A stretch of 64,000 nucleotides of DNA from Lytechinus variegatus (Eukaryota > Echinodermata > Echinoidea > Temnopleuroida > Toxopneustidae): NCBI RefSeq assembly GCF_018143015.1, contig NC_054753.1:28103462-28167461 (forward strand), written 5' to 3'. The notes beneath the pieces were generated by a model. The model saw only the letters and a list, made by a program, of their open reading frames with translations, was not told the DNA's origin and ran no database searches. Made by a program: the position numbers and the translations under genes. Positions 30,701-57,078 of the stretch are shown here, one piece after another. Position 1 is the first letter of the stretch. Each line of letters opens with the position of its first letter.

Positions 30701-33700
30701 ACTTAAATAGTAACATACAGTGATGATATATGCAATAATACATTATCTGCAGTGAATATATATACATATAGCGATGAAAGCACAAATAGCAATGTTGTGA
30801 ACGGCTTCCAAGAAAAACTGCAGAGGTTTGCAGTGATGCGACTTCCATGCTACAACCCCAATGTTGATAGTACATGTACATGTAAGAATAAAAAACATTG
30901 CTGCTAGCATCTTTACAATTTGAATTACTCATTAGTACTCTGTACATTAAAAAGAACTTGCATTTCCTGCGATTCTTGCACAGCAAATAATTGTTCATTA
31001 TTGAACTGGTGCAAAAGAACAATTACATACTAGTCTGCAGGCACAGACCCTAATTGAAACTTTGATCAACAAGTGTGCCTCCACGCAAAGACTAGCACAT
31101 ACAAAATTTGCTGTTCCAATACACGAGGCATGAGTAGGCTGATATCCACAAACAGGCTTGCATGAAAAACAACCACATTGAATTTTAGTCTGAAACAACT
31201 ATTTCATTGTTTTCCATTTTCAATTTATACTTTTCAAGTCAAATGCTTATTTCATTTGTCCCAGACACACCTCAATGCATTGGTTGAAGGAGTTTTCTAG
31301 GCTCCTTAGACCAGATATTTTGGCACTATTTGTGGCTCTTTCAATCTCTAAATGGGTCCTAAGAACGACCGAGTTGACTTTGGATACGCTTTGATCAGGG
31401 CCAAGTGGAAATCAAAGTTGTGTCATGCGCGACAGTGGGGGATTTCAAGTTCAGTGTTGACCTTTTGGTGTTGGTGTTGGGTCAATTTTTACGCGATTAT
31501 AACACCAAACATAAAATGAGGATGGTCCCGAAAAGTTACTCACTAGTTGTTGAGATGTCAATAATGTGATCTGGATCAGTCTTACAAAAACTCTGAATAG
31601 GTTTTGGAGCTAGGGGAAGCAATTGAAATTTTAACACTAACACCAACACCGAACATGAAATCACCTAATGGGGTCTGGAAAAGACCCTTATGATCATTCA
31701 GTTACCAGTGATTTAATTCATCAGTGAATATTAAAGTAGGCCAACATTTTGGAGATAACATGTGACAAGTCATGCGATCAAACAGGGATAACACTATTGA
31801 GTTCCTTATTGGACTTCATGCTTTTCTCAAACTGTGCCCAGAATAGTTCTTGACCATCCTCATCATCTGTCCACAGCATGTAAGGCTTGTTCTTACTCAG
31901 GAACAACCTTACTAGGTATGGGAGATCATCATCATCAATATCCTCAAGGAAAAACAGTATGATCTTGTCCAGTCTGCTGTCATTGAGTTCCTCTAGGGCT
32001 ATACGTACCTTGGTAATAAACCAGGCTTCACGTACAGAGTTGTTACTTAGCAAGAGAACAGTCTTGAAGCTTGTCTCAACGGCATAATGGAGAGCGTTTA
32101 TGTAGAACATTCCGAGGTGGAGGTCGTTGTCACCAAAGACCACTCTCTCAAGATGAGGAAACCTTTCCTGTAGAACTGGCTTCATGATGTCATCCACCCA
32201 TTCCTGGTCTTCCTCTTGGAACATCAGATTGAGCTGAAACTCATAGTCCTGGTCCCCAATATCCTGGACCATCTCCTCGTAGCCGCAGATGGCAAGTCTA
32301 AGAAGGAATGCCTTATAGTTGAACCACCATCGCTTCCAGTATGCCAACAAGGAAAGTGCTACAACCAGAATAGCTGTCAGAGACACACTCGTGATAAGAA
32401 GAATGTTGATGCCACAGTATTTATCTGGACTGAATGACAGAATTGGTGATCCTTCCATGTCTTTGATGGAAGATTGTGAGCAAAGTGTATCATTTGAATG
32501 GATGACTTCAACGTTGGTCGAGCGTAGCCACCTCACAAACCAGCGCAAGTCACATGTGCAGCCGAAAGGGTTTCTTGATGCGTCTATTTTGAAATTCTTT
32601 GGAAATGTCCTTCGTTTTATTGTAGTTATTTTGTTTTGTTGAATATAAAGACTTTGCAAATATGGGTTTTTATTGAATAATGTTTCAGGAATGATATCAA
32701 CATGGTTATTGTTTATGTCCAAAATACTAAGCTGAGATTGTATTGGAAATATATCTTCAGAAATTGATGAGATATAATTGTCACTGAGATCCAATGTTTT
32801 AAGAGAAGCCAAACCTTCAAAAACACCAGAAAACAGCACTTTAACAGATGAATGAGAAAGGAACAATATTTCAAGTTTCTTAAGGGGGTTGAAAGTTCCT
32901 GGCGCCAACATATCCAGGTCATTCTCTCTCAAGTCCAGTGTTAACAAAGTTTCAAGACTCGCAAATATGGATCGAGAAGTCAAAGAATCAAATAAATGTC
33001 TGCTCTGTAATTTGTTTTTACATAAAAACAGTCTCATGAGAGATGTTAAATTTGCAAACAGTTTGGTATCAGAAGTCGGGTACTGTATTGCAGATGATAA
33101 ATCCAATATGCGAAGATTTTGCATGTTTTGGAAAGGATTGTCAGATTTGTCCATTATCAAATCTTCCTTTATGAGGTAGAGCTCTTGTAGGTTAGTGAGA
33201 CTGGAGAAGCTAAGAGAATCAATCCCTTTTATATCATTGTTAGACATGTTCAGAATTTTGAGATGAATATATCTTCTTAGAAAATAGGAGTATACATGTT
33301 TAATTTCATTGAAAGAAAGGTCTAGATATTCCAATGAGGGAGGTGTTTGGGGAGCACTAGAAATATATTTTATTTTATTATGAGATAGGTTTAAGTGATT
33401 CAAAGAGCATAGATTAGAAAATGTACTTCCGGTCCAGCTTTCTATCAAATTTGCATTGAGTCTCAATTTTTGTAAGAATTTATTACAGAAGAACATGCCT
33501 TCAGGTAAATATATTAAATTGTTATCAGATAAATCTAATTCAATCAACTGGTCTAGTCCACAAAATGTATAGTTAGATAAAGTAGAAATGTCATTATAGT
33601 CCATTCTGAGGATGTTTAGTTTGTTTAATCCCCAAAACACAAAATCTGGGAAGGAGATCAGGTTATTCCAATTAAGATTCATAAGATGTATTTTGGGAAA

Positions 33701-36700
33701 ATGATGAGGACGGTGAAGAGATTGGTTTAGTGGAATTATTCTTTCTATACGGCAGAATGATAAGCTTAGTTCATTTATCTCATTTATTCCTGAAATGGAA
33801 GAGATGTAAAATTCTTTCATATTCTCATTTTCATTTAGTAATACATGTTGAATGCTTTTTAAAGCCGCAAAAATGTTTGTTGAAAGATTGTTTAAGTCAC
33901 AATGACGTATTTCAAGTGTTATGAGTGAGCAATTCTGAAGAGGTGCAAAGTCCAGAGATTTTATGGAGGATATTTGGAAATTATTAGAAAAATCAAGTGA
34001 TTTCATACTTTCAGACCACGGAAGAGCATCTGTGGGGACCGAACTCAAAAGGTTGAAATTCAGTTTCAAAACTGATAGAAGTTTATTTGAATGAAGTAAA
34101 CCTGCTGGCAGAGACTGGATGTGATTACTCCCCAGGTTTAATTCTGTGAGATTACCCAGAGGCTTAAAGGTACCATCTTCTATCAAAATGATATCATTGT
34201 TGGACAGGTCGAGCTTGATGATGTCTGGGAGATAGATGAATGATTTGTTGTGTAGGGTTTCAATGATGTTTTCAGAGAGATCAAGCACTATTGTGTTATA
34301 TGGAAGACCGTTAGGAACAGAATGAAGGCTAAGATTTTTACAGCTAGCGTTGACACCATGGCTGGTATATGTAACTTGGCACCCATTAGTAGAGACCGAG
34401 CTCCAGTTTAGAGATCCCTTTCTTCCAGATGCATCATACTTGTTGGACATTCCTCCGGATAGAGAGAATAGCACACAGGCAGTTGCCAAACAGATAAGGG
34501 TATACAGACGTGAACTAGCCATTTTGGATTCAAATCTTGTGATCTGTTTAGTACTGGATCAAGGAAATTCTCTTTGAGTCTTCCAATTGATGTGAGTGCA
34601 ATATCTTCTTTGCTTTATTTTTGCAGCAATCAAAACTTTCTGTCAGTTATTACCATTAGTGGACCAGTTTGCTTTGTGATTTAGTGTTGTCTGAAATATG
34701 GTAATAAAGTTTTAAGCATTGGAATTGTAAGCTTGGATCGAGAATGGCCTTTTGCAATGAAAATACAGAGTTTGAAGAACAGCTACGGACAGTGTCTCAA
34801 TCGATAATTATCCTGAATAAGTGCAGATTTCAAGCCACCTTATCATTTCACATTCCCAAGAGGCATCCGCGCAGGAAGTGACCGATCTCAAATTGTTCCG
34901 AATATCCCAGAGAATCGGAAAGTTTCTTGAAGTTGATTCCCTCTGGGGCAATCTGTCTTTTTCTGCAAGTTCTGTTGGCTTGATTCAGTCAGAGAATCAC
35001 AGGATTACGGCTAAAAATGAAATGAACACACCATCATCCACGATAATATAATATTACCTAAATTTAGACTACAATTAATTATTTCTTAAAAATTTTTAGG
35101 ACAAGAAATCATCATTTGCCAATTTTCTTTCAATAAGTTTCTTTTTTCTAACTTCATTCTTTTCCCTCTTACAACAAAATTTTAGGGAAATTTCTTTAGG
35201 TGCATCTAGGCCACAGCTTTAAGAAATAGAGAAGTTTTGCAATAAAATTACCTTGAATTCAATAATGGCTTTAGTAACTTACCAATTCTATAATCCCTTA
35301 CAAAATGGGTTACCACTTAAACGCTTTAATCATTTATGTTTAGATTTATTGAATAAGCTCAATTTCATAGTATCTGAATGTTAGCTTTGTGCTTGTAAAA
35401 TCAGAAAATATTCTATAAACACACATGATATAAAATAATTTCTTGTGAGTGCAAAATTAATGAAATTATTGATAACATGCTCTTTCAAGTTCTAACCAGG
35501 AGTTCTGATTACATGATTGATTTAACGTTTGCAGGATTAATTACATATAAATTATCGTATCAATCAATAATCTTGATCCGTATGTGTAAACAGAAGGTTG
35601 ATTATTTTACTTCGGTCAAAATAATGCTTTCAACATCTTGTAATACAAATTTATCATTTTATCTACATTTTTGTCAGAATCTTGTTTCATAGTTATTTCT
35701 TAAGGTTTAAATATAGAACAAAATGTATACTCACTGTTTTGAAGTAAAAAAAAATTAAATCTGAGCAGGAAACTGGGAACCCGAAGGGCATGAAAGAGAC
35801 CTTAATAGTGTTGTCTGAAGAAATACCTAAATGAAGGCTTTGGTAAATCACCTTTTCTACAACACTTACCAGCAAGATACAGGGTCACTCTCGCACCTAA
35901 CCATCATGATCCAAATCTAAAAATCAACTGCACTGTATGTGCTTGGTACATAAATCTTCATACCTACAATATTAAACCACACCCTTATTTGCACATTATT
36001 CAAATTAATTATCATTATAAACAACCTCTGCTTTCAAACTGGTACCGGAAATAAAAGTGAATAAAATAAATTGTCCAATTTATTCTCACAATCGTCTTTT
36101 AATCAGTAAAGAGAAAGTAATGCAACAACTTAATGGCTCTTTTTATGGTGCATCGCACAGAAAACAAAACTGAGAATTATCAAGGATCTGTCATAACTTA
36201 ATTACAATAAAGCGGACAAATGACCTATCATTTTGAAGCTTAAAGTAGAGTCTCCTCTTGCATCTGAAATAATTGAGATGATTCCTCATTCATGCATGAG
36301 TAAGTGAATTTAATTTGAAGAAAGGCTACTAAAAAGTCACTTGGCAGGCAGTATCTGAGTTTCAAAAAGAAAATCACATTTCTAAAGAGTTAAATATCTG
36401 CTCTTTTCTTTGATACTTCAGTTAGAGGAAATGGCCAAGAAATAACAATTTTTTTTTGTCAATTCGAAATATGGCCTGAATTCCAATAATTTCATAAAAT
36501 GTAGGGATTTTACAGGCTAGCTAGCTGTCAGACTTGCTCAGCACTCTGTATTTTTGATGATCAGTCATGCCTTAAGTCTTTATGAAGAGTGGAGTAGCTT
36601 TGGTCGAAAACTGGTAAAAACATGTTTGTTTCATCGAATAATGGAAATTCAAGCATTGTTTCGAAGGAACAGAACTTTGTTATTTCTCGATAATTTTCTG

Positions 36701-41049: not shown

Positions 41050-44000
41050 ATGGCTGTCCAATTTCGATACCTTGGTGGGTCAGGAGTGAAAGTTTCAAAC
41101 ATATGCCTCGGAACAATGACGTTTGGACAAAGTCAGGTGAATAATTTGGAGATATCATTAAGTCGTTGTTGCTATTTTATTTGACCCAGTCCGGAACGCT
41201 GAAATCTGTGTTTGTTGAATGAGTATGATTGGGAGTGTGCTGTCTGTCGCGTCGGCGGTCCTGCAGTCAGACTCAGAACTTGGTCAATAAAGTTACTAGT
41301 ACATTACTATACTAGATTGAGGAAGAGTTCCATGTTGTTGTTTGTTGGGTATAATGGCGACCAGTCATGTTTGAAAAAATGTCTTTATTTAAAGGGGAAG
41401 TTCACCCTGGAGAAAACTTTGTTGTAAAAATAGAAGAAAATATAGTAAAAAATATTGGTGAAGGTTTGAGGAAAATCCGTTAAAGAGTAAGAAAGTTATT
41501 AGAGTTCAAAATTTTGGATTTGTGACGTCATAAACGAGCAGCTGCCCCATGTGTTATGTAATATAAAATGTATGAATTTCAAATTTTGTATGGTTCCTGA
41601 TGACTTAATTTTGTTTTCTTTTCATGATCGGGTGTGAAATGAATTGTCTATTGATATACACTGTACAAACGTTACAGTGGAAACCATTTTCAATTTTCTG
41701 AGAAAATTACATTTCATTGATTTTTTACCATTCGCTATGTAGGAATGCTGCTCACAAATGACGTCACAAATCAAATAATTGAATTTCTAATAACTTTTTA
41801 ATTAGGCCTAGGCCTATTTGATAAATTTTTCTCAAACATTCGGCAATATTTTTTATTATTTTTTCTGCTATTTTTACAATAAACTTTTTGTCTGGGTGAA
41901 CTTCCTTTTTAATCAGAATATAAATGAAAAGACTTTCTACTTAAAAAAAAATAGATAGCTGATAGTGATAGAGACCTCTTTTCTTTTGGTATCATTAACT
42001 AGTACAAATATGCCAAAATGACTATTTTTGTCAGCTGATGGTGTTCATCTATGGCTGAAGGATGGGGGATGCAAGTGGGACATGTCTCCCACCCTCAATT
42101 TTCTTTGTTCTGTCCTCTCCTTTGATTTTCATTGCTTTACTTAACAATTTTTTATTTAAGAATTATTTTTTTTCTGAACAAATTTCGTCTTAGCTCATTT
42201 GTTTAAACGATAGAGATGATGGAAATAGAATTATCAAAGTTCTCCAATGCTGGAGCTCTAGGCAATACCATCGTCAATCATCATTTTGAAGTCCAAAAGA
42301 ACTTACACGCTTGGATGATTTTAACACGCTCAGAAGGAACTTACAGTTCCGTACCCCCCTCTTGTTTATGAAATCACCTCTCGGTAAAATGTATTTTTAT
42401 TTCTCATTGTTTTTTTTTTTTAATTATCATAAATAGGGACTATGTTTTCTTTCTATGCACCTTTCTTTCCACCTCCATTCACTTACACGAATACACAGGA
42501 AGGTGCTGAATATAAAAATTTACTGGTTTCCTTATCTAAACTAGAAAGGAGTTCACTTATCAACCATACTTTCAGCAGAGAAAATCGACTAGCAAAAAAA
42601 AATCTGATTTTATCTAGAAACTAAATATTTTTGTAAGTTCATACAAAAATTAATGTGAAGATGATGAAGTTCAAAGCTTCTGGGAAGACGGTGACTTGAG
42701 AAGGAGAAACAGAGAGAATAAGCGAAAAAGGAAGAAAAGAAGAGTAGAGGGAGGATAAGAAGGAGGGTATGTTTGTGCATTAAAATAATATGTCAAAATA
42801 AAAGAAAAAAAGTGTAAGTTTCTTTTAACATAAAAAATTATATCAAATTTCTTGTCCCTTATTCAAGGATCCAACCAGACCAGGGCAATGTGATGAAGGA
42901 GCAGCTCATAAGATCTTGGACCGATTTGCAGAGCTTGGAGGGAACTTCATCGATACTGCTAATGTCTATGTGATGGGCGTCTCTGAATCTATAGTGGGAA
43001 ACTGGTTGGCAAAGTAAGCACTAGCTCTTTGCACGCTGAATTAATTTTGTGGGAATGATAATGACAATTGTTTCCATGTTATTTTCTTTGATTCAAGATT
43101 TCCATATTGCACCATTGATACTTATTAACATTATATAGAGGTTATCCAAGAACTATTGCCTTTTATTAGCTTATCTAATTTGAAGGTAGGGAAGAAAATT
43201 TGATTATTACGATTTTTGAATTTAATTATTCAAATATGCAAGATTGCAACATCAGCGCACAAAGGGCTGGTATATGGAAGATCTTTGATATCACTTTTGG
43301 CAGAAAAAGGCTTGATTGAATAATATTAATCTATGTGTAGATATCTTTGCATTGGGTTTATTTTTTTTTATTTCCTGTGTCCACTCCTTTATATTGCCAT
43401 TGCTGCACATGAAAACATTAGGGCCCTGTAACAGAACGGTTCGAGAATGACTCTACAATTTATCTGGGCAATTTATTTCACATAATAGCAACCACTGCAA
43501 TAAAGTTTCATACTCATTGATCGGTCGTAAAGATTTGTCTGTACAAGATCCAGAATAATAAAATAGCAACTATTTTTTGTATGGTGGTACAAAATAAGGG
43601 AAATATCTGTGCATCACAATATATTGGGATGTAAACGTAATTGGTTTGTGAAGGAACTGATCTTCGAGTGTTCAGTGTATTTAGATTTTTTTATCTTCAT
43701 ATAAACAGATTTTATGTCTTCTATCTGCAGAGCGAATAAAAAGGAGGCCTACAATATCCACCTAGTTTTAAAGTTAGTGTTCAGTTAATCATAATGTATT
43801 GAATTCTATATCTTGCATTTTCCACTGGGTATTTCTTTAATTGCAATATATATTCTTTTTAAAAAATCATTGAAATGATCTGAAAGGGCTTCACTGCTCT
43901 TTTAACACATTATTTCTTCTAATGTTACAGGAGAAAGAGGGAAGACTTTGTTTTGGCTACCAAAGTCCGCTTTGAAATGGATCCAAACAATCCGAACAGT

Positions 44001-47000
44001 GGAGGGCTGAGCCGTAAGAACATTGTGTGGAGCTTAGAAGAAAGCCTGAAAAGGCTGCGTACTGATTACATTGATCTGTACCAGGTTAGATACATCTTAG
44101 AGATAAATTTCTTGTGCTGTCACTTTCCCACCTCCTATTCCTTATATTCTTCTTCATCTTCTCTTCTTACTGAATACATGAGTACTTTTGCCACTTTCGA
44201 GCTACCTTTTGTGATCTCTTTTTGTTTTTGTTTAGATCATGGTGAAATTTTTATTTGTTTTCTCATATTTTAACTATTTCTTCTTCCTTTTATTCTGTTT
44301 CTTCTCCAATTCTCCATTCTAGTAGTCTACTTTTCTCTTCATGACTTATAAGGAATAGTGTCATGTCCATTGAAACCTGGCCTGCTTCATAGAAGATTTT
44401 TGAAGAATTGTCAATGTAATAAATGATAACGACAATTGTTTTGACTGATCAATCACTGACTTATACCGTTTTCAGTAACTCATGATTTTGTGGTCTGCAC
44501 CAGACTTGCACTAAAATAGTCTGCACCACAAGCGTCCAGTAACTACATAGCACAGCGGCGCTATCACCCATTCAAATTCTCAGGAACATCATGGATGGCA
44601 CTGGTCTGGTGCTGTTAATAGCAGCATCAAATTAGCACCAGTCTGGCGCGGACTATTTTAGCATGCAGCATTCTCAATCTCAAAATTTAATGACTTATCC
44701 CGGAGCTGGTCTTGACTGCCATGTTGCTGAAAGTGGTATTGCTTGCTTACAGATACCAACAAATTGTATAAGTAGGTATGAAATAGGCTCAAGGGTGCTA
44801 TAAAATGCTAATATTTGATTTTATAATGTTTCTTGAAATGACTGCAAGACAATATCCAATCACTGCGATGACAATGTTAATCATTCAGATTCATGCTTGG
44901 GACCCAGCCACGCCCATTGAGGAGACCATGCGTACCCTGGATGACCTAGTGAGGGCCGGTAAGATCCGCTATGTCGGGGCCAGCAACGTGACCGGATGGC
45001 AGATGCAGAAGATCATGGATTTATGTCAGTACAAGGGATTTAACCGATGGATAACACTACAGGTAAAGTGATGTAATGTAGTATTAGTCAAACCGTCTTT
45101 GAGCTCAACCTGTATAAAAGGAGCACCTCTATTGATAGTAGATATATTTCATTTCCCAATTCTCTTTCTCATCTTATACTCAGATGTTCACCCCCCCAAA
45201 AAAAAAATAGAATGAAAGTTTGAATATGACGTTCTCTTCCTTTTTATGCTTGAATAGGTTCAGTACAGACTTCTAAATTGTGGTGGAGAGATAAAGGATG
45301 TCCTATGTGTAAATTTTCAGTCTTTTTAAAATAATCTTTTTAAATAATTTTTCCCTTTTCTCCATCTTCTTGGGCTGCCCCCTCTCTTGTATGTTCTATG
45401 TCCCCTTCCTTCTCTACTCTTCCCCCTCTCTCTCTCCTTCCCCTTTCCACCCTCTTACCTCCCTCTCTGTTTATCTCTCTCCCTCCTTTCCTCCCCTTCT
45501 ATCCCCTCCCCTTCTATCTCCCTCCCTTCTTTCTTTCTTTCTTTCTTTTTTTCTTTCTTTCTCTCTATCCCTGTCTCTCTCTCTCTAGGCACAGTATAGT
45601 CTCTTAAATCGAGAGTTGGAATGGGAGTTGGTAGATTGCTGTAAGAATGAAGCCCTGGGTATTCTTCCATGGAGTCCACTCAAAGGGTAAGTCTGCTTCC
45701 CCAGCAATATCATTACTAAAATGATAAGTGATAAATTGAGGGAAAATCATTCTTTTTTTTATTCAATTATACTTCTACTTTTGCAATATTGGTGTTGATT
45801 ACCATAAATAAAAGTAAAAATCAATTGCACAAGATATTTCGTAGCTTCTCTTATATGGTGGTTTATGATAATACTATCATTTTAATAAAAGGAACAACAG
45901 ATAGCTTGAAGAAAAAAATAAGGGAGAAATGTAACAACTCTGTATGATTTTCTGTATGAATTTCAGCCTGATGATTAGGTGTGCACTTTGAAAATGGTTC
46001 TGCAGTTATTAAAGAAATTCTCAAATACTGTAGTTGGTGATGGCAATCAGGTGAACCTACATTATGAATTAAGTATTTGACTTGACCAAGAAAAAAAAAG
46101 TCACTTAACACTTGAGTATTTCAAATGAGAATAAAGATCCTTTCTACAAACACTCCAGTTGGGACTATTCGGCCCCTTATACAGGTGCCTGATTGGCTAA
46201 AAACGAACATTAGCATTTGTGAAAATGGGTTTGCTCTTTGCACTTGACAATGCAGTGGTTGGCTAACGGGCAAAATGACACGAGACTCCCCACCGGAGGG
46301 AAGTCGGGTGGCGTTCGTTGAGACCAGACGATACATTGCCAAGGAAAGCCATCCCACCTTTTCAGAATTTGTGGGGGAAGAAAGAGTCTGGAATCTACTA
46401 GACAAAATGAAATCAATCGCAAATGATCAAGGTAATAGCAAAACTCTACATGTATATTATGGTTTGCATTCATAGTATCATGCAGGTTGAGAAAATAGAG
46501 ATATTCACAGAATAAGCAGGAAGGAAAGAAAAATGAACAGTGCTGGAAATGATTGGCTCTCAAACTGGAAAAAAAACGAATAGTTTACAAAATTGCCCTT
46601 TTGATTTTTTTGTTCAACACCGCGACAAAATCTTATTGACCATAAACAGAAGCTAAAGAAATATGCCTCTGTTATAGATATCAAGCAATAACATCCTCAG
46701 CTTTAAAATGTTTTTTCCTTGTCCTAAGCTCAAAGCAAATTAAAAATCTGGCTGAGAACAGTTTTAAAGAAATAACAAATTTGCTAAGAAATGAAAGCTT
46801 GAACAATTATAAAATACCAGTATACAATCGATTTGAGCCTTATTAAACAAAATAAAGAAGGATTTCATCTCAGCTTATATCACAATCCTCTTCTTTTTCT
46901 TTCCTGACACTCATTTTTTACTGTAGTTTCATGACAAATCCAAATGATAGCATGAATTTCACCCGCTAAGCAGGCTTACATTTAAAAGCTGTAATAGGAT

Positions 47001-50000
47001 GACAAAATTGATCCCAGTCAAATGACGGGATGTTAAATCGCACATGACCAGGCATTTATTTTGCATATTAATCCTCATGGCTCATCTCTTGTGCATGTTT
47101 GTTTCGAATGTACTTTATGTCGCAATTCTTTTGAATGCCCCTATTGATGTGCATACCAATCGCACTGTTTTCAAAGCTTTGCTGTATATCATCATATCAC
47201 TGCCAAATGCTTCTCAATTGCAAACATTTCAAAAAGGAAAAAAGAAAGATCTATGCCTATGATGCAATATGACAAACCTGGATAGGATAAGTCTTCTGAC
47301 TCCTTCAGCAAGAAACTGATCCACAATTTGCTGCACTCAACCCAGGTGAGGTAAATGGGTACCGGTAGGAAGTAATTCCTTAAGAAGCTGTGTGCGCTAT
47401 GAACGCCTAGCTTAGCCGGGTAATATAGGAGCACCTTGAGCACCTAACAAGGTGGATATGTGCGCAATATAAATATCCTATATTATTATTATTATTTGAA
47501 ACAGAGTGTCGTGGGTTCGAATCCCAGCCATGGCGTAATTTCCTTCAAGAAATTTATCCACATGGTGCTTCACTCTACCCAGGTGAGGTGAATGGGTACC
47601 CGGCAGGATTGATTCCTTGAATGCACGAGCGCTGAGAGGCAGCTCGAGCTAAAGCCGGGGTAATAATAATAACAACGTGCCTCGGAATAGAATAATTCTA
47701 GATAGATGCCGCTATATAAATGCCTGTTATTATTATTATTTGTATAGATCCCCTGTGACATCTATTTTGTGCATTAATCATACATTACATAGAACTCAAC
47801 AGTTTGTCGTATTTAAGAATTATATGATTACTAGAACCTTCAAATCTAAACTGAAGTCTTGTCTTTTCTAACAGTATGAGATATTGGCACTTTGACTCTC
47901 ATCCAAACTCTCTCATTCTTTCTTTTCTTGTGCTCCTTGGAATAGCATTTTTCTAGATTGATGGCACTATATGAATGCCTATTATTATTATTATTATTAG
48001 AACGTCTAGACACCTGAATGGATGAATGAATGAATGTTGGTCACATGAGTCATGTGACCAACATGAGACATGAACAAGGGTCGGCTATTGCAAAGTTGCA
48101 TGTACAAATCATGGAATTGACGTCCGTTGCATGCATGAGGAAGGAGTAAGGGGAATAGATTACAGAACAGATAGCATTTTGACATAGCATTCGGTTAAGA
48201 GGATTCGATTCGGATTTTGCATTTGGGAGCTGAAAGTTAAGAGCCTTAGTTAGTTTTTTCAAATCCTGCTTAATTGGACTTGGTGATTTCCGGGGATGAT
48301 TTTGATCCTTTGCATGTGCAACATGCCTACAGTTACCGGTATATTGGATCAGATTAAAACAAAAAAAAGGTGAGCAAAATGAGTCTGCCTTAAAGTGGTT
48401 GGTTAACATTGGTTTGACTTTTAAAAAATCTGAGCTAGAAGGTCACACTTGTCACCTTTGTCTGTGATATGTTACAAAAATGAAGCCCAGAAAAAATTGC
48501 GTTAAAAAATAATTATTTAGTGCTTCAAAAATTGAAATATAAAGTGACCAGAAACACCATCTTAATGTCATCCCATACACTTATGTGTACTATTTAGGCG
48601 TCTATAAGACGCCTATTTACAAAATCGGGGTTTGCCTTGTAGTTTTAGCTTTTCATTCTCAATAATAGTTGTTTTTCAGGGTTAATTAGTTCTAACACAT
48701 GCACTTGTACACATGTTTCATCTTGGTTTGAGAATTTTTTTTATATCGGCTGCTCACAAAGTTAAACAATACCTTTAAGAATCAAGACTTCCACTAGATC
48801 TAGTTCTACCACTCCTAGGCCTAATGGTAATCTATCTCTGTTATTTGGTTTAGAATATATTGTATGTTGTGTAAGCAAATATTCAGTGTTTTTGTCATTT
48901 AAGTGACAGTTAGAATATTACATGTACATGAATTCGTTATAAGCTCAGACCAATTCAACTTGGATGCTTCTGATGATATTTGTACTTGTTAACTTTTGAA
49001 ATGCAAAGCCCTGTAAATGGTCTCTGCAATAACAAATGTAAAAATGATTCACATGACACAACATTTGCTCATGCAACAATTGAGCACTCTAGTCTTAATA
49101 TCTCAGAGGGCACAGGGTTACAGTTAGGATTGTAATATAATTTTTGATTCAGAATAATGTGAAAATAGAGATTGGGGTTTGTTTAATTTTTTAATGTTAC
49201 GTTTTATCTGGGGAGGGGGGCCGTAAGTAAGGGTAAAGCCAACGTCCGTGACATAACAATTCAGATATCATTGTACTTGTTTAGGGGGTCTCTTGTCAAG
49301 GGTACCATTTTGGTAGCAGTATTTGTTAAGGGTAGGGTTTCACATGCCAATACTTGTTAAGGGGTGCATTGTCAGAACATGGAAAATACTTCTTTAGGGT
49401 GCCTTTCGAAACCCAGTGGTCATGCATGGTATCCACTCGTCAATGGAAGTGACCACCCCCCCCTCCCCCTTGGTTTTATGAAGGTTTTATAATTATGTGC
49501 AAATTTTCCATCAGAGCAATTGTCAGCGGAGCAAATGTCATGGAACTTAAAGGTCAAGTCCACCTCAGAAAAATGTTGATTTGAATCAATAGAGAAAAAT
49601 CAGACAAGCACAATGCTGAAGATTTCATCAAAATCGGATGTAAAATAAGAAAGTTATGACATTTCAAAGTTTCGCTTATTTTTAACAAAATAGTTATATG
49701 AACGAGCCAGTTACATCCAAATGAGAGAGTCGATGATGTCACTCACTCACTATTTCTTTTGTTTTTTATTGTTTGAAATATGAAATATTTTGATTTTCTC
49801 ATCATTGTCATGTGAAATGAAGTTTCATTCCTCCCTGAACACGTGGAATTCCATTATCTTAACATTTTGTGCTTCAGGCAAGGAGGTCCTAATCATCAAA
49901 TTCGTAAAAATTGAAATATTGTATAATTCAAACAATAAAAAACAAAAGAAATAGTGAGTGAATGACATCATCGACTCTCTCATTTGGATGTAGCTGGCTC

Positions 50001-53000
50001 GTTCATATAACTGTTTTTGTGAAATGAAGCGAAATTTTGAAATGTCATAACTTTCTTATTTTACATCCGATTTTGATGAAATTTTCAGTGTTATGCTTGT
50101 TGAATTTTTCTTTTTTTATTCAAATCAAGTTTTTGTTGGGTTGGACTTGTCCTTTAATAACGGGATGTTTTCATCAATATTTTCATCCGACAAGTTGTCA
50201 GATCTGCAGGGATGCCAGTTTTCAGGCCTGAAAAGCCTGAATTCAGGCTCTGGCAATTTATTTTCAGGCCATAGTTTTAGCATTTCTGTGTACAAAATAT
50301 TGTATTCCAGGTGATTTTCAGACCCTCTGATCAATTCCAACTGTCATCCCTAGATCTGACATCTTTCCATGATTTTGATTGGCTGAGAGGCACTGTTCCT
50401 ATGGTAACTGTCGGGTAAAATGGGACTTGTCGGATAAAACGTCTGACAAGTCCTTTCATGAAACGCCCCCCTGTTCTTCCAAAAAAACGAAGCCTAATGT
50501 TGGATTTGGTCATTCTTGCAGACTAAACTTTGCATGTTGTGCACGGTTATAGTGTAAATACATCCCTGGTGTTTCACATAGAGATCATGCCTCAGTGTGC
50601 ACTTTTTATTTGATGCGGAACATCACACAGTAGTGCATACCCATTGAGCATTTTGTGGTCGTTTCGGTGATGTGTTATATACATGCCCATCATGCAACTA
50701 GGGATTTTACTTGTCACAAAGTCACTCGTAATTTTTGTGGAGAACACCGGGAGAAAAATGTGATGCAGAACTTCACAAGTCATGCTCTCCTATTTAGCAT
50801 TATCTGTCCTTTGTGATGCGTCATTTACTGGCTGCAAATATGAATAGAAGAGCGCCTTGTCACAAAGTCGCACTTAAATCTTTGTGAAACACACCCCAGG
50901 ATTTGTTTCACTGAAACTGCTCGGCAAAGTTGTGCATGACTAGAATAATAGAAATCCAAATGAGAATTTCATTCATTCTTTCTTGTTTGTCACATCATGG
51001 AAAGGTAAAAAAGTGCGTAAGTAGATAGCATTCTTGTTGCTAACAATCAAGGTAATGTACATTTATGTTACAATTAAATGTAGGTTATTGTGAATATGGT
51101 CTCACTTTATAAAAAAACTTGGGCTGTCTTATTTTCAGTTGGTCACAAGGTTATGCATAACTTTACAAATAGCTTTAAATCCGGCTCATGCCTTTGCATT
51201 AATAGCTGCTGTTGCTGCATTAGCCAAACTAACAAATTAGTGGGCTAAAGTGCAAAGCATTAGTTTTTGACCTCCTACATGTATATTCTTGCTTCATTGC
51301 ATTTGTTGGGTTTGACTACATTGTCAGCTTCTGGCTTCTGGCAATACGCAGCTGAATAACAGCTGAAAATGCACAAGTTTGAGCCAATCAGCATAAAACA
51401 CCCCTACACTCCCATTAACACACTGGTGACAGTAGCGGTGTCTTCATGTTCACCCATTCATTTATTTATTCATTTTATTTTGCTCTTTTTGTCCTTTCCC
51501 TCCCATGACACCCAGGGGGTGGTTGACGGGTAAGATTAAACGTGATTCGGCCCCAGAGGGCAGCAGAGTTGCTTTCATGGAAGCCAAAGGGGAGGTCAAA
51601 AGTGAGAGCCAGCCAAGCTTCTCGAAGTTTGCTCAAGAAGAGAAAGTTTGGAATCTCTTGGATGTGATGAAGGCGATAGCGGATGAGGCTGGTAGGTGGA
51701 ACCTAAACAGAGTCACAACCATAAAAAGGGGCCCCGATGAGAGATAAGATTATATTTAATTCAAAATTTTAAACTCGACGATGTGGCACGTGCCTGTAAT
51801 CCAAACTGTGTGGGGAAGTTAGAAATTGATGCACAGGTCAGAGGTCCCAGCCCTGGTCATGTTTTTTGGATGGTGATGTTTAAGGTCGGTCCCAGACGTA
51901 AATAATCATATCTGATTGATACAAGTCTGACAAAACTTATTTACACACACACCCTCACACACCAGAAGACCAAGCGGATCAGGGGCTCGTTTCATAAAGG
52001 ACTTGCATCTGCTGCCATTATGGCAACTATCATGGTAACAAGGCTCAGCAGCCAATCAAAATCAAAGTTGCCACGGAAGTTGCCATAATGGCAAAGTTGC
52101 AATAGTTGCAAGTCCTTTATGAAATGGGACCCTCGAGGATAACATTGTGTTAACATCGAAAGATTTTGAATCGGCCAGCTTGAGCATGATTTTTTTGTGT
52201 GTAGGCACACATAGTCCTATTTCCACCTCATGCTGGTAGAATCAAGAGGTGCCTTTATTATGACACACTCTACTGACAGATGTTATTTCTATACTGAAGC
52301 ACGGTTTTTGGGGGGTCCTCAAACAGAGCTGCCAAGTAGTACTGATTTTCCGTATTTAGTACTGAAAATAGAGAAGAATACTGATGGTTTCATGAAAAAT
52401 ACTGATTTCTTAATTTTCAGTTTATGTGTTGTCCTATGATATTCCTGTGAAAATACTAATTTTCCCACCAAAATACTGATCTTCACCCTTGAAAATACTG
52501 AAATGTTCTTGTGCAGGTTGGCAGCTCTGCTCAAACCACACGAATCCACCGGAATCATCTTGAATGACCTTGAAGTTTGAATTCTCTGTATAAACACAAA
52601 GTATGAGGAGAGCAATTCACGCACCCTTTGTGATATTGTGTCTTTTCGTAGAGATCTGATAAAAGACATTTAAAAAGGATGGGAGTCTTGTCCATCTGTT
52701 CTGCGTTGTTCTCAAGAACTGAAACAATTTGACAATTGTTAACTTCAAAAGTTTAAACTTTGCCCATTTTTGCAGAGTGCTCATGGCTTTAACTGTCATT
52801 TTTACCTTAGCTATAGCACAACTTCCTTCTCAGATCATATGCATTTTGAGAAATTAATATTCCTGCCACCCTACCCATTTTGCCACTAATACAGTTTTGA
52901 TTTCTCTCCATTCCATGCATTTGGTAAACCTGCTTATACTTTAGACCATTTCATTGCACATTCATCAAAATTATTAATATCTTTCAGTGACGTTCTATTA

Positions 53001-55644
53001 TTAAATATATTCTATATCAATTTTTTGCTGACCTATATACACAAATGAATGATGTCTGCAAGCTTGTATTGCTACCTATAGTGGACCATGCACTGTACCT
53101 TATGAAATGATTAATGAAGAGTGCTTTTTTTTACCAAGGAACCAAAAAGAAGTAAAGTTGTTTTTGGAAAGTAGCATTCATTGACTTTGGTTTTCCATAA
53201 AAAGTTGAAATGCATTTTGATTCAGAGTCTAATTTTAACTTAAATTCGCTGATTTTTGTTTAAAAAAAGTTTATCTGTTTTGCTCTACACATTTCACTGT
53301 TTAATATTTAGTTTACCAAGAATAAAAATATGAAACTATTTGTTTTGAAAAGTGATACCTTGGTTTCCCAGATAAAGTTGAAAATCATCTTAAGTCTAAT
53401 TTGAACATAAAAGTCATTGAGTTTTTTTTTTTGCAGAGTGAAAAGATGAAATTTGTTTTGATTTACAAGTTTAATCATTCTGGTTTGTAGGTAAGACTGT
53501 CAGCCAAGTGGCCCTCCGATGGCTACTACAGAAAGAAGCTGTTTGCTCCGTGATCATCGGAGTGAAGACATTAGACCAGCTCAACAACAACATGGGTGCT
53601 TCCACAGGATGGGAACTTACCGACCAACAGGTACTTTGTAGAATACAAATTTAGGGTAATATATTGACCTAAAGAGGGGGGGGGACGATGGGGGTATTAT
53701 GTTTGGGGGTGCTGTCAATGTAAAGGGATTGGATGAGAGACCAATGAAGGATTAGGGTGATGTGGCATTGAAGACTAGGGAGGTGTTTCACAAAGGTGAA
53801 AGTGTAACTGAAGAGTTGCACTTAAATTTCCAGTTGCGTACGGACGGTACGGTATAAAAGGCACTAACGCATCAATTATGACTCTAATGGGGTGTTGCAA
53901 GAAATGTGCTATCAATCGCAAGTCTATTTTTGGTCCCTAAATCAATCGTATGTCTTGCAGTTACTTGCAAATTAGTGATTGATTGCTAATCTGCTCCTTG
54001 AAGCAAGAAGTTTCATCTGATTTGCTACAGCTAACATTGATCTATCAGTTGTGAAATTGCAACAGAATATTTGCAATTGATCGCAAATATTTTCTTGCAA
54101 CACCCCCTTAGTCACAGCAAACTATTTGTGGAACACCCCAGACCCTTTAGATATTTGTGTGCTGAAGTAATTCTGCACAGATGATATTGGTAATTGTTAT
54201 CGCCCAAGGAAGGGATATAGGAGGTATTATGTTTCTGGGTTGTCTGTCCATCATGTTTTTGTTCTCACGATTACTCAAGAACCGTTTGAAAAATTGACTT
54301 CTTATGTATGAATATGGGAGTGACCAGGAACTGTTTAGTTAAAGGGGTATGGAGTTCAAAGGTTGAAGGTCACAGAGGTCATTATATACCTTTGATGCCT
54401 TGTTCCCGCGATAACTCAAGAATCATTTTACATATATCATTCTGCCTTCATTTGTCTGTTCATTTCTTCATTTCCCTTCATTGATTGATTGATTCATTCA
54501 TTTATTCAACAATAAATCAGTAAATCTGTTATCTTTCACAGAACACCACTAAGAATACTTCAGATCACAACATTGCAAAGATTTGCGATGAATATGAAAT
54601 ATGATTGGTTCTGGGTTAGAGGTTTGAACAAAATGTGCATGCTACAATGATCTCGATTGGCCAGTACAACTTAGTTATTGATTGAAAGCCTCTGTGCTGT
54701 TAACGTATATCTGAGTGCCCAGTATGAAAAATTTAATTCTTGATCCGATTTCACCTAATATGCTTGTCTTATTGTGACCTGATGACAGATGAAGCGGCTA
54801 AATGAGGCTAGCGCTGTTTCGCATCCATATCCTTACTGCACAATAGCTAAAGTAGGCAAGGACCGTCCCAGGACTGACTGTACACAGTAATGCACACTGA
54901 TGAGTTCTTGCACATGTCGTATACAGGTCTGGATAAGCATAGTCCTCATAAAATATGTAGAATTTAGAATAGAGTCATTGTTTTATTCTAATTCTAGGAT
55001 AATTTCATGGAGATGCTGGGCCATAATGAGGCAAATTCCATCCTAACATCCATTTAATTTGATTAAAGAGTGAATTTTGGGGTGGTGGGGGGAGTGGCAA
55101 CTTTCTCCCACCAAACCTGGAATATCATTCTTTGGTCTAATCAGTCATTCTTTTGTCTTATCATTCATTAATTCATTCACTCATTTATTCATCCATCTAT
55201 CCATCCATCCATTAATTGTCCATCCATCGATCAATATTTCTTCAATAGTTTGTATCATTGGATGAAACAATTGTGCATGTATGCTATGCATTCATTCATC
55301 ATTCATTCATTCACTTATCCATCCATCCATCCATTCATCCATCCATCCTTTAATTGTCCACCCATCAATATTTCTTCAATAATTTGTATCATTGGATGAA
55401 ACAATCAAACAGCACATCTCATTTCCTACAAAGAATACCTGTAAAACATTTCAAATATATCTTCTTCAATACCAAGCTGAGATAAATCCTTCAAGTATTA
55501 ATGTTTTTTTTTTTATTTGTGTGTATTTTTTCCTGTCATCAGATGAAGCGACTGAATGAGGCCAGTGCTGTAGCCCTACCCTACCCATACAGCATGTTAG
55601 CAAGAGTAAGCACAGGTCGTATCAGGAGCGACTTTACACAGTAA
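41050..55644 (+). CDS. Aldo-keto reductase with alternative exons 6 and 8
   Basis: NAD(P)H-dependent TIM-barrel oxidoreductase. The substrate is unknown; the sequence type is YajO/Tas/K-channel-beta-like. Exons are 41050-41136, 42868-43013, 43931-44084, 44889-45062, 45589-45686, then 46256-46431 (6a) or 51516-51691 (6b), 53491-53630, then 54789-54890 (8a) or 55543-55644 (8b). Taking one of each gives 1077 bases and 358 residues; every junction is GT-AG and in phase. The catalytic tetrad is visible: Asp58 and Tyr63 ([12 protein letters not shown]), Lys89 (LATKVRF) and His131 (QIHAWDP). Other family marks are [44 protein letters not shown] and [14 protein letters not shown]. Exons 1-5 and 7 are single, so the two copies of exons 6 and 8 are best read as alternative exons of one gene. 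A decayed second gene is the other reading. Confidence 0.88.
41389..41912. mobile_element. TTAA-type MITE, GGGGAAGTTCACCC family, in AKR intron 1
   Basis: Left end TTAAAGGGGAAGTTCACCC, right end GGGTGAACTTCCTTTTTAA. It has inner inverted GTGACGTCA blocks and a subterminal AGTAAGAAAGTTATTAG motif shared with the other TTAA families. Confidence 0.7.
43014..43930. other. AKR intron 2
   Basis: AT-rich. No element or exon copy recognised. Confidence 0.5.
44085..44888. other. AKR intron 3 with a degenerate inverted repeat
   Basis: About 44465-44745 holds imperfect inverted blocks (TGCACTAAAATAGTCTG against GCGGACTATTTTAGCATGC, and GCACCAGAC against GTCTGG-type strings). Probably an old MITE; the ends are not clear. 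Confidence 0.4.
45258..45329 (+). pseudogene. Decayed second copy of the start of AKR exon 5
   Basis: After an acceptor-like TTGAATAG the frame reads VQYRLLN, then loses similarity and meets a stop without a usable donor. Functional exon 5, about 330 bases on, begins AQYSLLN in the same phase. It is best explained as an old exon duplication that decayed, in line with the intact duplicates of exons 6 and 8. The match is short, so chance is possible. Confidence 0.45.
45406..45586 (+). repeat. 180-base pyrimidine tract ending at the AKR exon 5 acceptor
   Basis: Nearly pure C/T with CTCTCTCT, CCTTTC and TTTCTTTC blocks. It runs straight into the acceptor CTCTCTAG|GCACAG and so doubles as an extreme polypyrimidine tract. 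Open frames here are artefacts. Confidence 0.85.
46256..46431 (+). CDS. AKR alternative exon 6a
   Basis: 176 bases, entering in phase 2 and leaving in phase 1. It encodes [19 protein letters not shown], then [17 protein letters not shown] and [15 protein letters not shown]. By eye about 37 of 59 residues match exon 6b. Both splice sites are good (TGCAG|TGG, CAAG|GTAATA). In this family the segment follows barrel strand 7 and includes loop residues near the cofactor and substrate. Confidence 0.85.
47300..47494 (+). mobile_element. 5'-truncated tRNA-derived SINE
   Basis: Body and tail of the same SINE as 38026-38271 (ACCGGTAGGAAGTAATTCC, then GCGCAATATAAATATCCTAT, ending ATTATTATT). The tRNA head is missing. 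Confidence 0.7.
47495..47747 (+). mobile_element. tRNA-derived SINE, partly truncated head
   Basis: Starts GAAACAGAGTGTCGTGGG with B box GGTTCGAATCC, then the SINE body (CCATGGCGTAATTTCCTTC, GCTAAAGCCGGGGTAATAAT) and a 3' end GATGCCGCTATATAAATGCC with an ATT tail. It joins the preceding copy head to tail. Confidence 0.7.
47750..48000 (+). mobile_element. LINE 3' scrap with the SINE-type tail
   Basis: A frame ending [11 protein letters not shown] resembles the basic C-terminus of LINE proteins. About 60 bases later TTTCTAGATTGATGGCACTA and an (ATT)n tail follow, closely like the 3' end of the SINE just upstream. This suggests that the SINE borrows a LINE 3' end. Confidence 0.45.
49190..49465 (+). 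repeat. Dispersed repeat, second copy of the 4890 family
   Basis: The right end GCATGGTATCCACTCGTCAA matches 5219-5238. The left part has TTGTTAAGGG and TTGTCAAGGG blocks. Confidence 0.5.
49547..50157. mobile_element. TTAA-type MITE, GGTCAAGTCCACC family, copy B
   Basis: Left end TTAAAGGTCAAGTCCACCTC and right end GGACTTGTCCTTTAA, with TTAA on both sides. Shares the inner TTTCATCAAAATCGGATGTA arms with copies at 28917, 56283 and 61985. Confidence 0.75.
50160..50471. mobile_element. MITE, GACAAGT/TTTCATGAAACG family, copy 2, interrupted
   Basis: Same ends as 24695-24854, but split by the hAT-like insertion at 50207-50352. Without the insert it is about 160 bases, like the other copies. Confidence 0.75.
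50207..50352. mobile_element. Small hAT-like element with 6-bp target duplication GATCTG
   Basis: Left end CAGGGATGCCAG, right end CTGTCATCCCTA. GATCTG is present exactly at 50201-50206 and 50353-50358. The uninterrupted sequence is known from the sister MITE copies, so the insertion boundary is certain to a base or two. Confidence 0.75.
51516..51691 (+). CDS. AKR alternative exon 6b
   Basis: Also 176 bases with the same phases as 6a. Encodes [36 protein letters not shown] and [15 protein letters not shown]. Acceptor ACCCAG|GGGG and donor GCTG|GTAGGT. Differences from 6a cluster in the middle ([10 protein letters not shown] against [10 protein letters not shown]). Confidence 0.85.
51982..52134. 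mobile_element. MITE with GGGGCTCGTTTCATAAAG ends
   Basis: The left end continues into GACTTGCA. The right end is the inverse (TGCAAGTCCTTTATGAAATG, then GGACCC). The inner pair is TGCCATTATGGCAAC/GTTGCCATAATGGCA. Confidence 0.7.
52324..52529. mobile_element. Small hAT-like element with 6-bp target duplication CTCAAA
   Basis: Ends CAGAGCTGCCAAG and TTGGCAGCTCTG are perfect inverted repeats over 12 bases. CTCAAA lies at 52318-52323 and 52530-52535. The interior repeats the motif (A)ATACTGAT several times. Confidence 0.75.
53888..54110. mobile_element. MITE with GGGGTGTTGCAAGAAA ends
   Basis: Left end TGGGGTGTTGCAAGAAA, inverted right end TTTTCTTGCAACACCCCC. It lies inside a looser outer pair (GGTGTTTCACAAAGG / TTTGTGGAACACCCC), so one element may sit inside another. 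Confidence 0.6.
54789..54890 (+). CDS. AKR alternative terminal exon 8a
   Basis: 102 bases, phase 0, ending in TAA. Encodes [16 protein letters not shown], then [17 protein letters not shown]. Acceptor GATGACAG. About 21 of 33 residues match 8b. No AATAAA was seen between this exon and 8b, so a transcript using 8a may carry 8b as 3' UTR. Confidence 0.8.
   Translation: MKRLNEASAVSHPYPYCTIAKVGKDRPRTDCTQ
55150..55370. repeat. (CATT/CATC)n microsatellite with a duplicated spacer
   Basis: Runs of ATTCATTCATT and CATCCATCCATC. The spacer TATTTCTTCAATA(G/A)TTTG followed by TATCATTGGATGAAACAA occurs twice, at about 55235 and 55370. Confidence 0.8.
55543..55644 (+). CDS. AKR alternative terminal exon 8b
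   Basis: 102 bases, phase 0, ending in TAA. Encodes [16 protein letters not shown], then [17 protein letters not shown]. Acceptor TCATCAG. The segment after PYPY, which in this family forms the C-terminal tail near the substrate pocket, is where 8a and 8b differ most. AATAAA at 56218-56223 is a possible polyadenylation signal. Confidence 0.85.
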   Translation: MKRLNEASAVALPYPYSMLARVSTGRIRSDFTQ

Positions 55645-56139: not shown

Positions 56140-56290
56140 TACGCCCTTTTAAGATTTCTCTCATTTATGCTGAAATATAGGGCGCCTCCATTGATGAGTA
56201 AATATCATGCGTGCCCAAATAAAACGTGTGAAAAGGGTCTCCTTTTCAAGATTGGGCATGTTACGTGATACGGGTGTCAAAAACAGTTAT
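56140..56290 (-). repeat. Dispersed repeat, inverted copy of the 4890 family
   Basis: The reverse complement reads TTTTTGACACCCGTATCACG, then CACGCATGATATTTACTCAT, which aligns with 5139-5238. Confidence 0.55.
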
Positions 56291-56822
56291 AAATTTTGAA
56301 AGTTCCATTTATTTCACAAAACTGTTATATGCACATCCTGATCTGTATGCTAATGAGAGAACTGATGACATCATCCACTCTCTATTTGTTTTATAGTTTA
56401 TTGTATGAAATTTGAATTATTCTAACTTTCCCCTCCATGCCATGTGAAAGAAAGTTTTATTCCTTTGTTAACATGTGGAATTACCATTGTTTTACATTTT
56501 ACGGTTCAATCAAGTTGGCCCTTGTTGTCAAATTTGTAAAAAAATGCAATATTGAATTATTTAAACAATAAAAAAAGAAATATTGAGTGATGGACATCAT
56601 CAAGTTTGGCGCGTGAGACAACAGATAACCCCTTACTCCCATCATCAACTTTCTTGTTTGCATGTCACTGGCTTGTTCATATAACTGTTTTGTGAAAAAT
56701 TAGCGAAACCTTAAACTTTCTTTTTTGACATCCGATTTTGATGAAGTTCAGTCCAGCATTATGCTTGTTAGATTTTACTCTATTGATTCAAATCAATATT
56801 TTTCTGGGGTGTACGTGAAAAC
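56283..56822. mobile_element. TTAA-type MITE, GGTCAAGTCCACC family, copy D, left end lost
   Basis: Shares the TTTCACAAAACTGTTATATG, CATGTGAAA and ACATCCGATTTTGATGAA blocks with copies at 28917, 49547 and 61985. The left end is missing and the right end is diverged. Confidence 0.6.
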
Positions 56823-56927
56823 TTTAAATCAGTTAATCCATAGGTTCACTCTTGGGTTTTTCTCTGACGAACTGAGTTTGATTACTCTGCCACACTCTGC
56901 AATGTTTGATGCAGCTCTGGGGACCGT

Positions 56928-57078
56928 TTCATCAACATTTTTGTCTGACAAGATGTCAGATCTGACAACTTTCCTAGATTCTGATTGGCTGAGAGGCACT
57001 GTTACTATAGTAACTGTCGGATAAAATGGGACTTGTCGGATAAAACGTCTGACAAGTCCTTTCATGAAACGCTCCCCT
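56928..57078. mobile_element. MITE, GACAAGT/TTTCATGAAACG family, copy 3
   Basis: GGGGACCGTTTCATCAAC to TTTCATGAAACGCTCCCC, uninterrupted, about 150 bases. Confidence 0.7.

What the first reader, a model, noticed from the sequence alone, without database searches (positions are those of the whole stretch)
46256..55644. Aldo-keto reductase gene with two versions each of exon 6 and the terminal exon
Exons 6a and 6b are both 176 bases and 8a and 8b both 102 bases. Each pair has the same phases, good splice sites and open frames, yet only about 63% amino acid identity by eye. Exons 1-5 and 7 are single. Long-diverged copies that both stay open suggest that both are used, giving up to four proteins on one catalytic core. 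The variable parts lie in regions that in this family shape the cofactor and substrate pocket, so exon choice could switch substrate range. I do not know of this arrangement being described.
Basis: partly seen in the sequence, partly recalled or inferred. Interest (0 to 1): 0.82.

Follow-up and report, generated by a model that had tools for sequence, protein, structure and literature searches.

The report
Reductase gene with two swappable loops
An animal gene for a carbonyl-reducing enzyme carries two old, well-preserved versions of each of two exons, and these exons hold the cofactor loop and the lid loop, so splicing could in principle make four enzymes on one fixed catalytic core, although no RNA was available to show that it does.

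Summary
An aldo-keto reductase gene (41050-55644, +) has paired exons 6a/6b (176 nt, 36/58 residues identical) and 8a/8b (102 nt, 21/33), with good splice borders and matching phases; all four combinations give an open 358-residue protein. No second exon 1-5 or 7 was found in the 869.6-Mb genome. Taking both or neither exon 6 gives an immediate stop. Codon analysis shows purifying selection: exon 6 omega 0.04-0.06 rejects one dead copy; exon 8 omega 0.18-0.21 does so only weakly. The best match is AKR18 enzyme DepB (49-50%). Against its published structure, exon 6 holds coenzyme loop B and exon 8 the 26-residue swapped loop C. But all 12 published pocket residues lie in single exons, and loop B's NADPH-binding lysine is the same in both copies. 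Most likely: mutually exclusive exon 6 and alternative terminal exon 8, tuning loops rather than the inner pocket. Use and function are inferred; no RNA and no second animal genome were available.

The parts
41050..41136 (+). exon 1 coding part, from ATG (87 nt), single
42868..43013 (+). exon 2 (146 nt), single; holds catalytic Asp58 and Tyr63
43931..44084 (+). exon 3 (154 nt), single; holds catalytic Lys89 and loop A Phe92
44889..45062 (+). exon 4 (174 nt), single; holds catalytic His131, and Ser161, Asn162
45589..45686 (+). exon 5 (98 nt), single; ends just before loop B
46256..46431 (+). exon 6a (176 nt): loop B and the helix after it, version a
51516..51691 (+). exon 6b (176 nt): loop B and the helix after it, version b
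53491..53630 (+). exon 7 (140 nt), single; holds Lys304 and Gln308, equivalents of DepB Arg290 and Gln294
54789..54890 (+). exon 8a (102 nt with stop): end of helix H2 and loop C, version a
55062..55067 (+). ATTAAA poly(A)-signal-like site between 8a and 8b, followed by a G/GU-rich stretch; candidate 3' end for 8a transcripts
   Evidence: consensus match only
55543..55644 (+). exon 8b (102 nt with stop): end of helix H2 and loop C, version b
56218..56223 (+). AATAAA poly(A)-signal-like site downstream of 8b (another at 56567)
   Evidence: consensus match only

Best explanation
This is one AKR18-like aldo-keto reductase gene in which two exons were duplicated in tandem, probably in separate events, and both copies of each were kept. 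Exon 6 is spliced in a mutually exclusive way: no U2/U12 conflict and no short-intron clash is visible, so exclusivity would rest on regulators or RNA structure, backed by the reading frame, because double inclusion or double skipping gives an immediate stop. Exon 8 is chosen as an alternative terminal exon with its own 3' end. The result would be up to four 358-residue enzymes with the same catalytic residues and inner pocket but different loop B (coenzyme belt) and loop C (C-terminal lid, which in DepB swaps into the partner subunit). Exon choice most likely tunes coenzyme handling, outer substrate selectivity and subunit assembly rather than the chemistry. Shown here: anatomy, phases, single copy of the rest, purifying selection, mapping onto loops. 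Inferred: that both copies are spliced into mRNA, exclusivity, 3'-end choice, functional effect.
For: Four open 358-residue products with GT-AG borders; double inclusion or skipping gives a stop within about 12 nt of the new junction. Selection: exon 6 omega 0.044-0.060, rejecting omega=1 (p 4e-13 or less) and 0.5, roughly the value expected if one copy were free (p 2e-7 or less); exon 8 omega 0.18-0.21, rejecting 1 (p 0.001 or less) and only marginally 0.5 (p 0.039 and 0.068). All 8 exon-6 positions that are at least 70% conserved among 80 prokaryotic relatives (counting columns with 60 or more letters) are kept by both copies; of 7 exon-8 positions at 60% or more, both copies keep the same 6 and share the same change at the seventh. 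At 60% the exon-6 picture is looser: 12 positions, 10 kept by 6a, 9 by 6b. Residues 246-251 are present in 6a and 6b and in none of the 80 relatives, so the copies descend from one animal-type exon. Silent changes are more saturated in exon 6 (26/33 unchanged-residue codons) than in exon 8 (9/20) (p=0.017), suggesting two events. DepB loop B (214-245 unmodelled) aligns with residues 223-259, inside exon 6; DepB loop C (26 residues) starts at the equivalent of Ser333 if it ends at residue 343, so it corresponds to 333-358, inside exon 8 (beyond residue 342 placed by length). Differences: 16/38 in 223-260, 6/18 in the following helix, 0/7 at the end of H2, 12/26 in loop C. An ATTAAA with a G/GU-rich stretch lies between 8a and 8b.
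Against: No RNA was available, so neither use nor exclusivity is shown. None of the offered collections holds other animal genomes, so conservation of the arrangement is untested. All 12 published pocket residues and the NADPH-binding Lys226 do not change with exon choice. In loop C proper omega is 0.38 and not separable from 1 (p=0.079), and exon 8 alone excludes one free copy only weakly. Loops B and C also vary widely among the prokaryotic relatives, so divergence there may be weak constraint rather than specialisation. 6a (donor 6.7 bits, 10/17 pyrimidines) and 8a (9/17) have weaker sites than 6b (8.1 bits, 13/17) and 8b (13/17) by a matrix recalled from memory, so a versions might be minor forms; but single exons 4 (acceptor 9/17) and 3 (donor 6.5 bits) score no better.
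Confidence: 0.75

Rival explanations
1. Both copies are used but give enzymes that work the same; the duplication only allows separate control of expression, stability or tissue, and loop differences are drift under weak constraint.
For: Pocket and cofactor residues are constant. Variable residues sit mostly where prokaryotic relatives also vary. Loop C omega 0.38 is not separable from 1.
Against: Loop B as a whole (223-260) has omega 0.064 (p 6.5e-9 against 1) and its most variable part, 241-260, 0.16 (p 0.007), so both loop versions are held by selection, though this does not say for what.
Confidence: 0.2
2. One copy of one pair (most plausibly 8a or 6a, with the weaker splice sites) is a decaying relic that is rarely or never used.
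For: Weaker acceptor and donor of 6a and acceptor of 8a; 8b is nearer the prokaryotic sequences in 44 of 80 and 8a in 13 of 80 comparisons, the rest ties; one free copy is only marginally rejected for exon 8.
Against: Intact frames, stops, phases and borders although silent sites are near saturation in exon 6; exon 6 rejects a free copy at p 2e-7 or less.
Confidence: 0.12
3. Two genes: a tandem gene copy whose exons 1-5 and 7 are missing, lost or collapsed in the assembly.
For: Tandem gene copies are common in detoxification families (general knowledge).
Against: Order 6a-6b-7-8a-8b cannot come from one gene duplication without further events; no other exon 1-5 or 7 found in the genome at E<=1; 61% (exon 6) and 73% (exon 8) nucleotide identity is too low for unmerged haplotypes.
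Confidence: 0.04

Closest known systems
DepB / AKR18 family (PDB 7utf, 8hwn)
   Same: 49-50% identity; all 12 listed pocket residues, the catalytic Asp-Tyr-Lys-His, loop-B Lys and, by length, a 26-residue loop C. Foldseek puts the model of bacterial relative L011 closest to 7utf and 8hwn.
   Different: The DepB-like genes fetched here are uninterrupted bacterial frames with one loop B and one loop C; here a 6-residue stretch (246-251) is added in loop B and both loops have two versions.
coq-2 of helminths, annelids and molluscs (PMC7434440; passages read)
   Same: An enzyme with two mutually exclusive exons of equal length (6a/6e, 134 nt in C. elegans, not a multiple of 3) that remodel the enzyme core and decide which substrate is used.
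   Different: One pair only, internal only, with RNA and mutants; unrelated enzyme.
CYP4F3 (named in a passage of PMC7434440; original papers not read)
   Same: Exon choice switches substrate preference, leukotriene B4 against arachidonic acid.
   Different: Unrelated fold; one switch (that it is one exon pair is recalled).
Ketohexokinase KHK-A/KHK-C (PMC11332825; passages read; that the exons are 3A/3C is recalled)
   Same: Splice forms of one metabolic enzyme with different substrate affinity.
   Different: One switch; unrelated fold.
Human AKR1B15 (PMC4519324; passages read)
   Same: An aldo-keto reductase gene with two splice forms; loops A, B and C are named there as shaping the pocket.
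   Different: Its second form has a longer N-terminus; no duplicated loop exons are mentioned in the passages seen.

Membership tests
Aldo-keto reductase superfamily | Pfam PF00248 over cut-off along the whole barrel | tested here: met
   273 and 269 bits for the 6a8a and 6b8b proteins against a cut-off of 24, residues 17-332
Aldo-keto reductase superfamily | catalytic Asp, Tyr, Lys, His | tested here: met
   D58, Y63, K89, H131, all in single exons; each shared by 80 of 80 prokaryotic relatives
AKR18 | at least about 40% identity to members (rule as applied in PMC9427786) | tested here: met
   50% and 49% to the 8hwn and 7utf rows
AKR18 | separate cluster in a sequence similarity network | not tested
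   no network was built
AKR18 | reduction of 3-keto-deoxynivalenol or similar ketones | not testable with these tools
   needs purified enzyme; 12 of 12 DepB pocket residues are shared, as they are by 9 of 80 prokaryotic relatives
Mutually exclusive tandem exons | adjacent homologous exons of equal length and phase | tested here: met
   6a/6b 176 nt each
Mutually exclusive tandem exons | double inclusion not tolerated | tested here: met
   frame breaks with an immediate stop; a prediction from sequence only
Mutually exclusive tandem exons | transcripts hold exactly one of the pair | not testable with these tools
   no RNA data
Alternative terminal exons | each has its own stop and poly(A) site | tested here: inconclusive
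   stops in both; poly(A)-like signals after each but no 3'-end data

The most novel reading that the evidence does not exclude
A two-slot modular enzyme: independent exon choices swap two of the three specificity loops of a TIM-barrel reductase (loop B and loop C) on a constant core. Because loop C of this family reaches into the partner subunit, mixing 8a and 8b subunits would build hybrid active sites, so one gene could yield more active-site types than proteins.
Probability: 0.2. Interest if true: 0.75.

Novelty: new variant of a known kind. Interest (0 to 1): 0.5.

Why it matters
A clear change of enzyme specificity by one splice event in the catalytic core is called rare in PMC7434440 (passage). 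Here two separate exon duplications landed on the two loops that, in the closest solved relative, form the coenzyme belt and the swapped lid, while every listed pocket residue stayed in single exons. If both are used, it is a natural experiment on how loops B and C set the behaviour of an aldo-keto reductase, and a compact way for an animal to widen its reductase repertoire without adding genes.

Tried and rejected
Two collapsed or tandem genes: rejected on exon order and the absence of other exons found in the genome. Unmerged haplotypes: rejected at 61% and 73% nucleotide identity. Relic exon 7 near 8a: the upstream extension of the 8a match holds five stops, and by arithmetic its identity outside 8a is about one in five. 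Steric or U2/U12 exclusion: the intron between 6a and 6b is 5084 nt and the donors of exons 5, 6a and 6b look U2-type. Trace of the duplications in flanking introns: only words of 10-13 bases are shared beyond simple repeats; ungapped agreement fades after about 3 bases at exon 6, while the 20 bases upstream of 8a and 8b agree at 12 of 20, a possible faint trace. Are such exon copies usual in this genome's aldo-keto reductases? Two other loci (L092, L093) showed none by the same self-comparison; these are 2 loci only, while one search lists 19 exon-level matches outside this gene. Rooting the copies with 80 prokaryotic relatives: b versions are nearer somewhat more often (exon 6: b 34, a 24, ties 22 of 80; exon 8: b 44, a 13, ties 23 of 80), too weak to name the older copy. 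Two relative searches with a single protein found nothing. No Rfam family reached threshold in the window. Docking-selector RNA pairing was not tested; with one species it could not be told from chance. Papers: nothing listed described this arrangement, judged from titles and abstract starts: 13 papers, 11 listed; 15; 2; 29, 12 listed; 4; 0. The library lacks most subscription journals. A Fisher test for residues 241-260 used mistyped counts (14/6 and 8/30); one search gives the right one (13/20 against 9/38, p=0.0039).

Full report
What is there. A plus-strand gene with eight coding exon positions spans 41050-55644. Internal borders are all AG/GT and the phases fit. Positions 6 and 8 exist twice: 6a 46256-46431 and 6b 51516-51691 (176 nt each), 8a 54789-54890 and 8b 55543-55644 (102 nt each with stop). 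Each of the four combinations gives 1077 nt and an open 358-residue protein; 6a/6b share 36/58 residues and 8a/8b 21/33 without the stop.

Is it one gene? tblastn in the window finds single copies of exons 1-5 and 7. In the host genome (869,567,369 bases, 33 contigs) the 6b/8b protein has 10 matches at E<=1, all in this window. The 6a-7-8a part has 6 at E<=10: five here and one at E=7.6 elsewhere. Other aldo-keto reductases exist in the genome (of 23 exon-level matches to the Pfam profile, 4 are this gene and 19 lie elsewhere), but the protein searches did not find them, so none is a near copy. Two of those loci, checked by self-comparison, show no duplicated reductase exons. The order 6a-6b-7-8a-8b needs exon-level duplications. 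An uninterrupted 914-residue LRR-TIR frame in the window agrees with what I recall of sea urchin genomes.

Selection. Differences by codon position are 16, 10, 42 of 58 for exon 6 and 5, 8, 15 of 34 for exon 8. A codon model gives omega 0.044-0.060 for exon 6 and 0.18-0.21 for exon 8 under two frequency settings. If one copy had been free since duplication, omega would tend to about 0.5 or more (inference); this is rejected for exon 6 (p 2e-7 or less) but only marginally for exon 8 (p 0.039 and 0.068). By part: residues 221-240 omega 0.011, loop B variable part 241-260 0.16, helix 261-278 0.065, 326-335 no residue change with silent changes in 5 of 10 codons, loop C 336-358 0.38 (p=0.079 against 1). 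Residue changes are concentrated in 241-260 (13/20 against 9/38 elsewhere in exon 6, p=0.0039). Silent changes among unchanged residues are 26/33 in exon 6 and 9/20 in exon 8 (p=0.017), so the exon 8 pair is probably younger or partly homogenised.

Relatives. Both exon 6 copies keep all 8 positions that are at least 70% conserved there; at 60% there are 12, of which 6a keeps 10 and 6b 9. Both exon 8 copies keep the same 6 of 7 positions at 60% or more and share the same change at the seventh. Residues 246-251 exist in 6a and 6b and in none of the 80 relatives. Thus the copies come from one animal-type exon. A quick tree of the constant region groups the protein with L018 (support 0.61), then L015 (0.70); by branch length L011 and L015 are nearest. 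No other animal sequence was available.

Which enzyme. The nearest solved structures by sequence are DepB proteins 8hwn and 7utf (E 6e-91 and 4.9e-90), with 50% and 49% identity in alignment. An AlphaFold2 model of the bacterial relative L011 (mean pLDDT 94.7) is nearest to the same two entries by Foldseek. The 7 NCBIfam families matched by each of two isoforms were all below their cut-offs. I therefore call the protein AKR18-like on identity; activity is untested.

What the variable exons encode. From PMC9427786 (abstract, passages, and the section on the substrate-binding site): loop B is the beta7-H1 loop, mainly for coenzyme, and could not be modelled without it (214-245 over the four chains); loop C is 26 residues, its helix is swapped between subunits and it reaches into the partner's active site; Lys217, Arg290 and Gln294 set NADPH preference; the pocket is lined by 12 named residues. 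Mapped by alignment, 214-245 is residues 223-259, inside exon 6 (residues 221-278). Loop C corresponds to 333-358, inside exon 8 (326-358): the start aligns, and the part after residue 342 is placed by equal length. The 12 pocket residues are all identical to DepB here and all lie in exons 1-5. Lys217 is Lys226 in exon 6, the same in 6a and 6b; Arg290 is Lys304 and Gln294 is Gln308, both in exon 7. DepB Glu222 is Ser231 in both copies. All 12 pocket residues are shared by 9 of 80 prokaryotic relatives. In the L011 model the exon 6 equivalent starts after the beta7 region and runs through a long loop to the end of helix 247-263; exon 8 starts inside helix 307-317 and holds the C-terminal helix 325-334 (boundaries placed by motif).

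How it probably works. Double inclusion of exon 6 reads into a stop about 10 nt into 6b; skipping both reads into a stop at the start of exon 7. Such transcripts would be expected to be destroyed by nonsense-mediated decay (general knowledge). Nothing seen in the splice sites enforces exclusivity mechanically. For exon 8, an ATTAAA followed by a G/GU-rich stretch lies 172 nt after the 8a stop, and AATAAA sites lie downstream of 8b; these are consensus matches only. Exon 7's donor is the weakest of the gene and 8b's acceptor has more pyrimidines than 8a's by a recalled scheme, which would suit a regulated choice but proves nothing, since the acceptor of single exon 4 is as poor as that of 8a. 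Functionally I expect tuning of coenzyme binding and release, outer substrate selectivity and assembly. A change of the inner pocket or of NADPH preference through the tested residues is not supported.

What is new. Splicing that swaps substrate-related parts of an enzyme is known: coq-2, with CYP4F3 as the other named case, and such cases are called rare there (PMC7434440, passages). Ketohexokinase forms are another case (PMC11332825, passages). AKR1B15 has splice forms that differ at the N-terminus (PMC4519324, passages). I saw no listing of duplicated loop exons in an aldo-keto reductase (titles and abstract starts, open-access library, showing 12 of 29). The combination of two separately duplicated loop exons in one reductase is what sets this apart, if RNA confirms use.

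Noticed in passing
window 31778-34522 (-): Uninterrupted 914-residue frame with many leucine-rich repeats and a C-terminal TIR-like domain: it looks like a Toll-like receptor gene without introns.
   Followed up: partly
window 11952-14126 (-): A frame of a glycosyltransferase family 8 gene at 11952-12662 (PF01501, 30.9 bits); the neighbouring frame 13260-14126 may be the same gene's membrane-anchored N-terminal part but had no Pfam match.
   Followed up: partly
host genome contig C13, 15.75/22.01 Mb and 18.12/24.47 Mb: Aldo-keto reductase exons occur twice with equal or near-equal scores at offsets of about 6.26 and 6.35 Mb, which looks like a large segmental duplication or an unmerged haplotype block.
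   Followed up: no
window 49557-50311 and 56416-57000: Related interspersed repeats, partly as inverted copies, inside the 6a-6b intron and just downstream of the gene.
   Followed up: no
window 45313-45604: Pyrimidine-rich simple repeat ending directly at the exon 5 acceptor.
   Followed up: no
window 55180-55530: Two diverged copies of a CATC-rich stretch with an 82-nt repeat (89% identical) between 8a and 8b.
   Followed up: no
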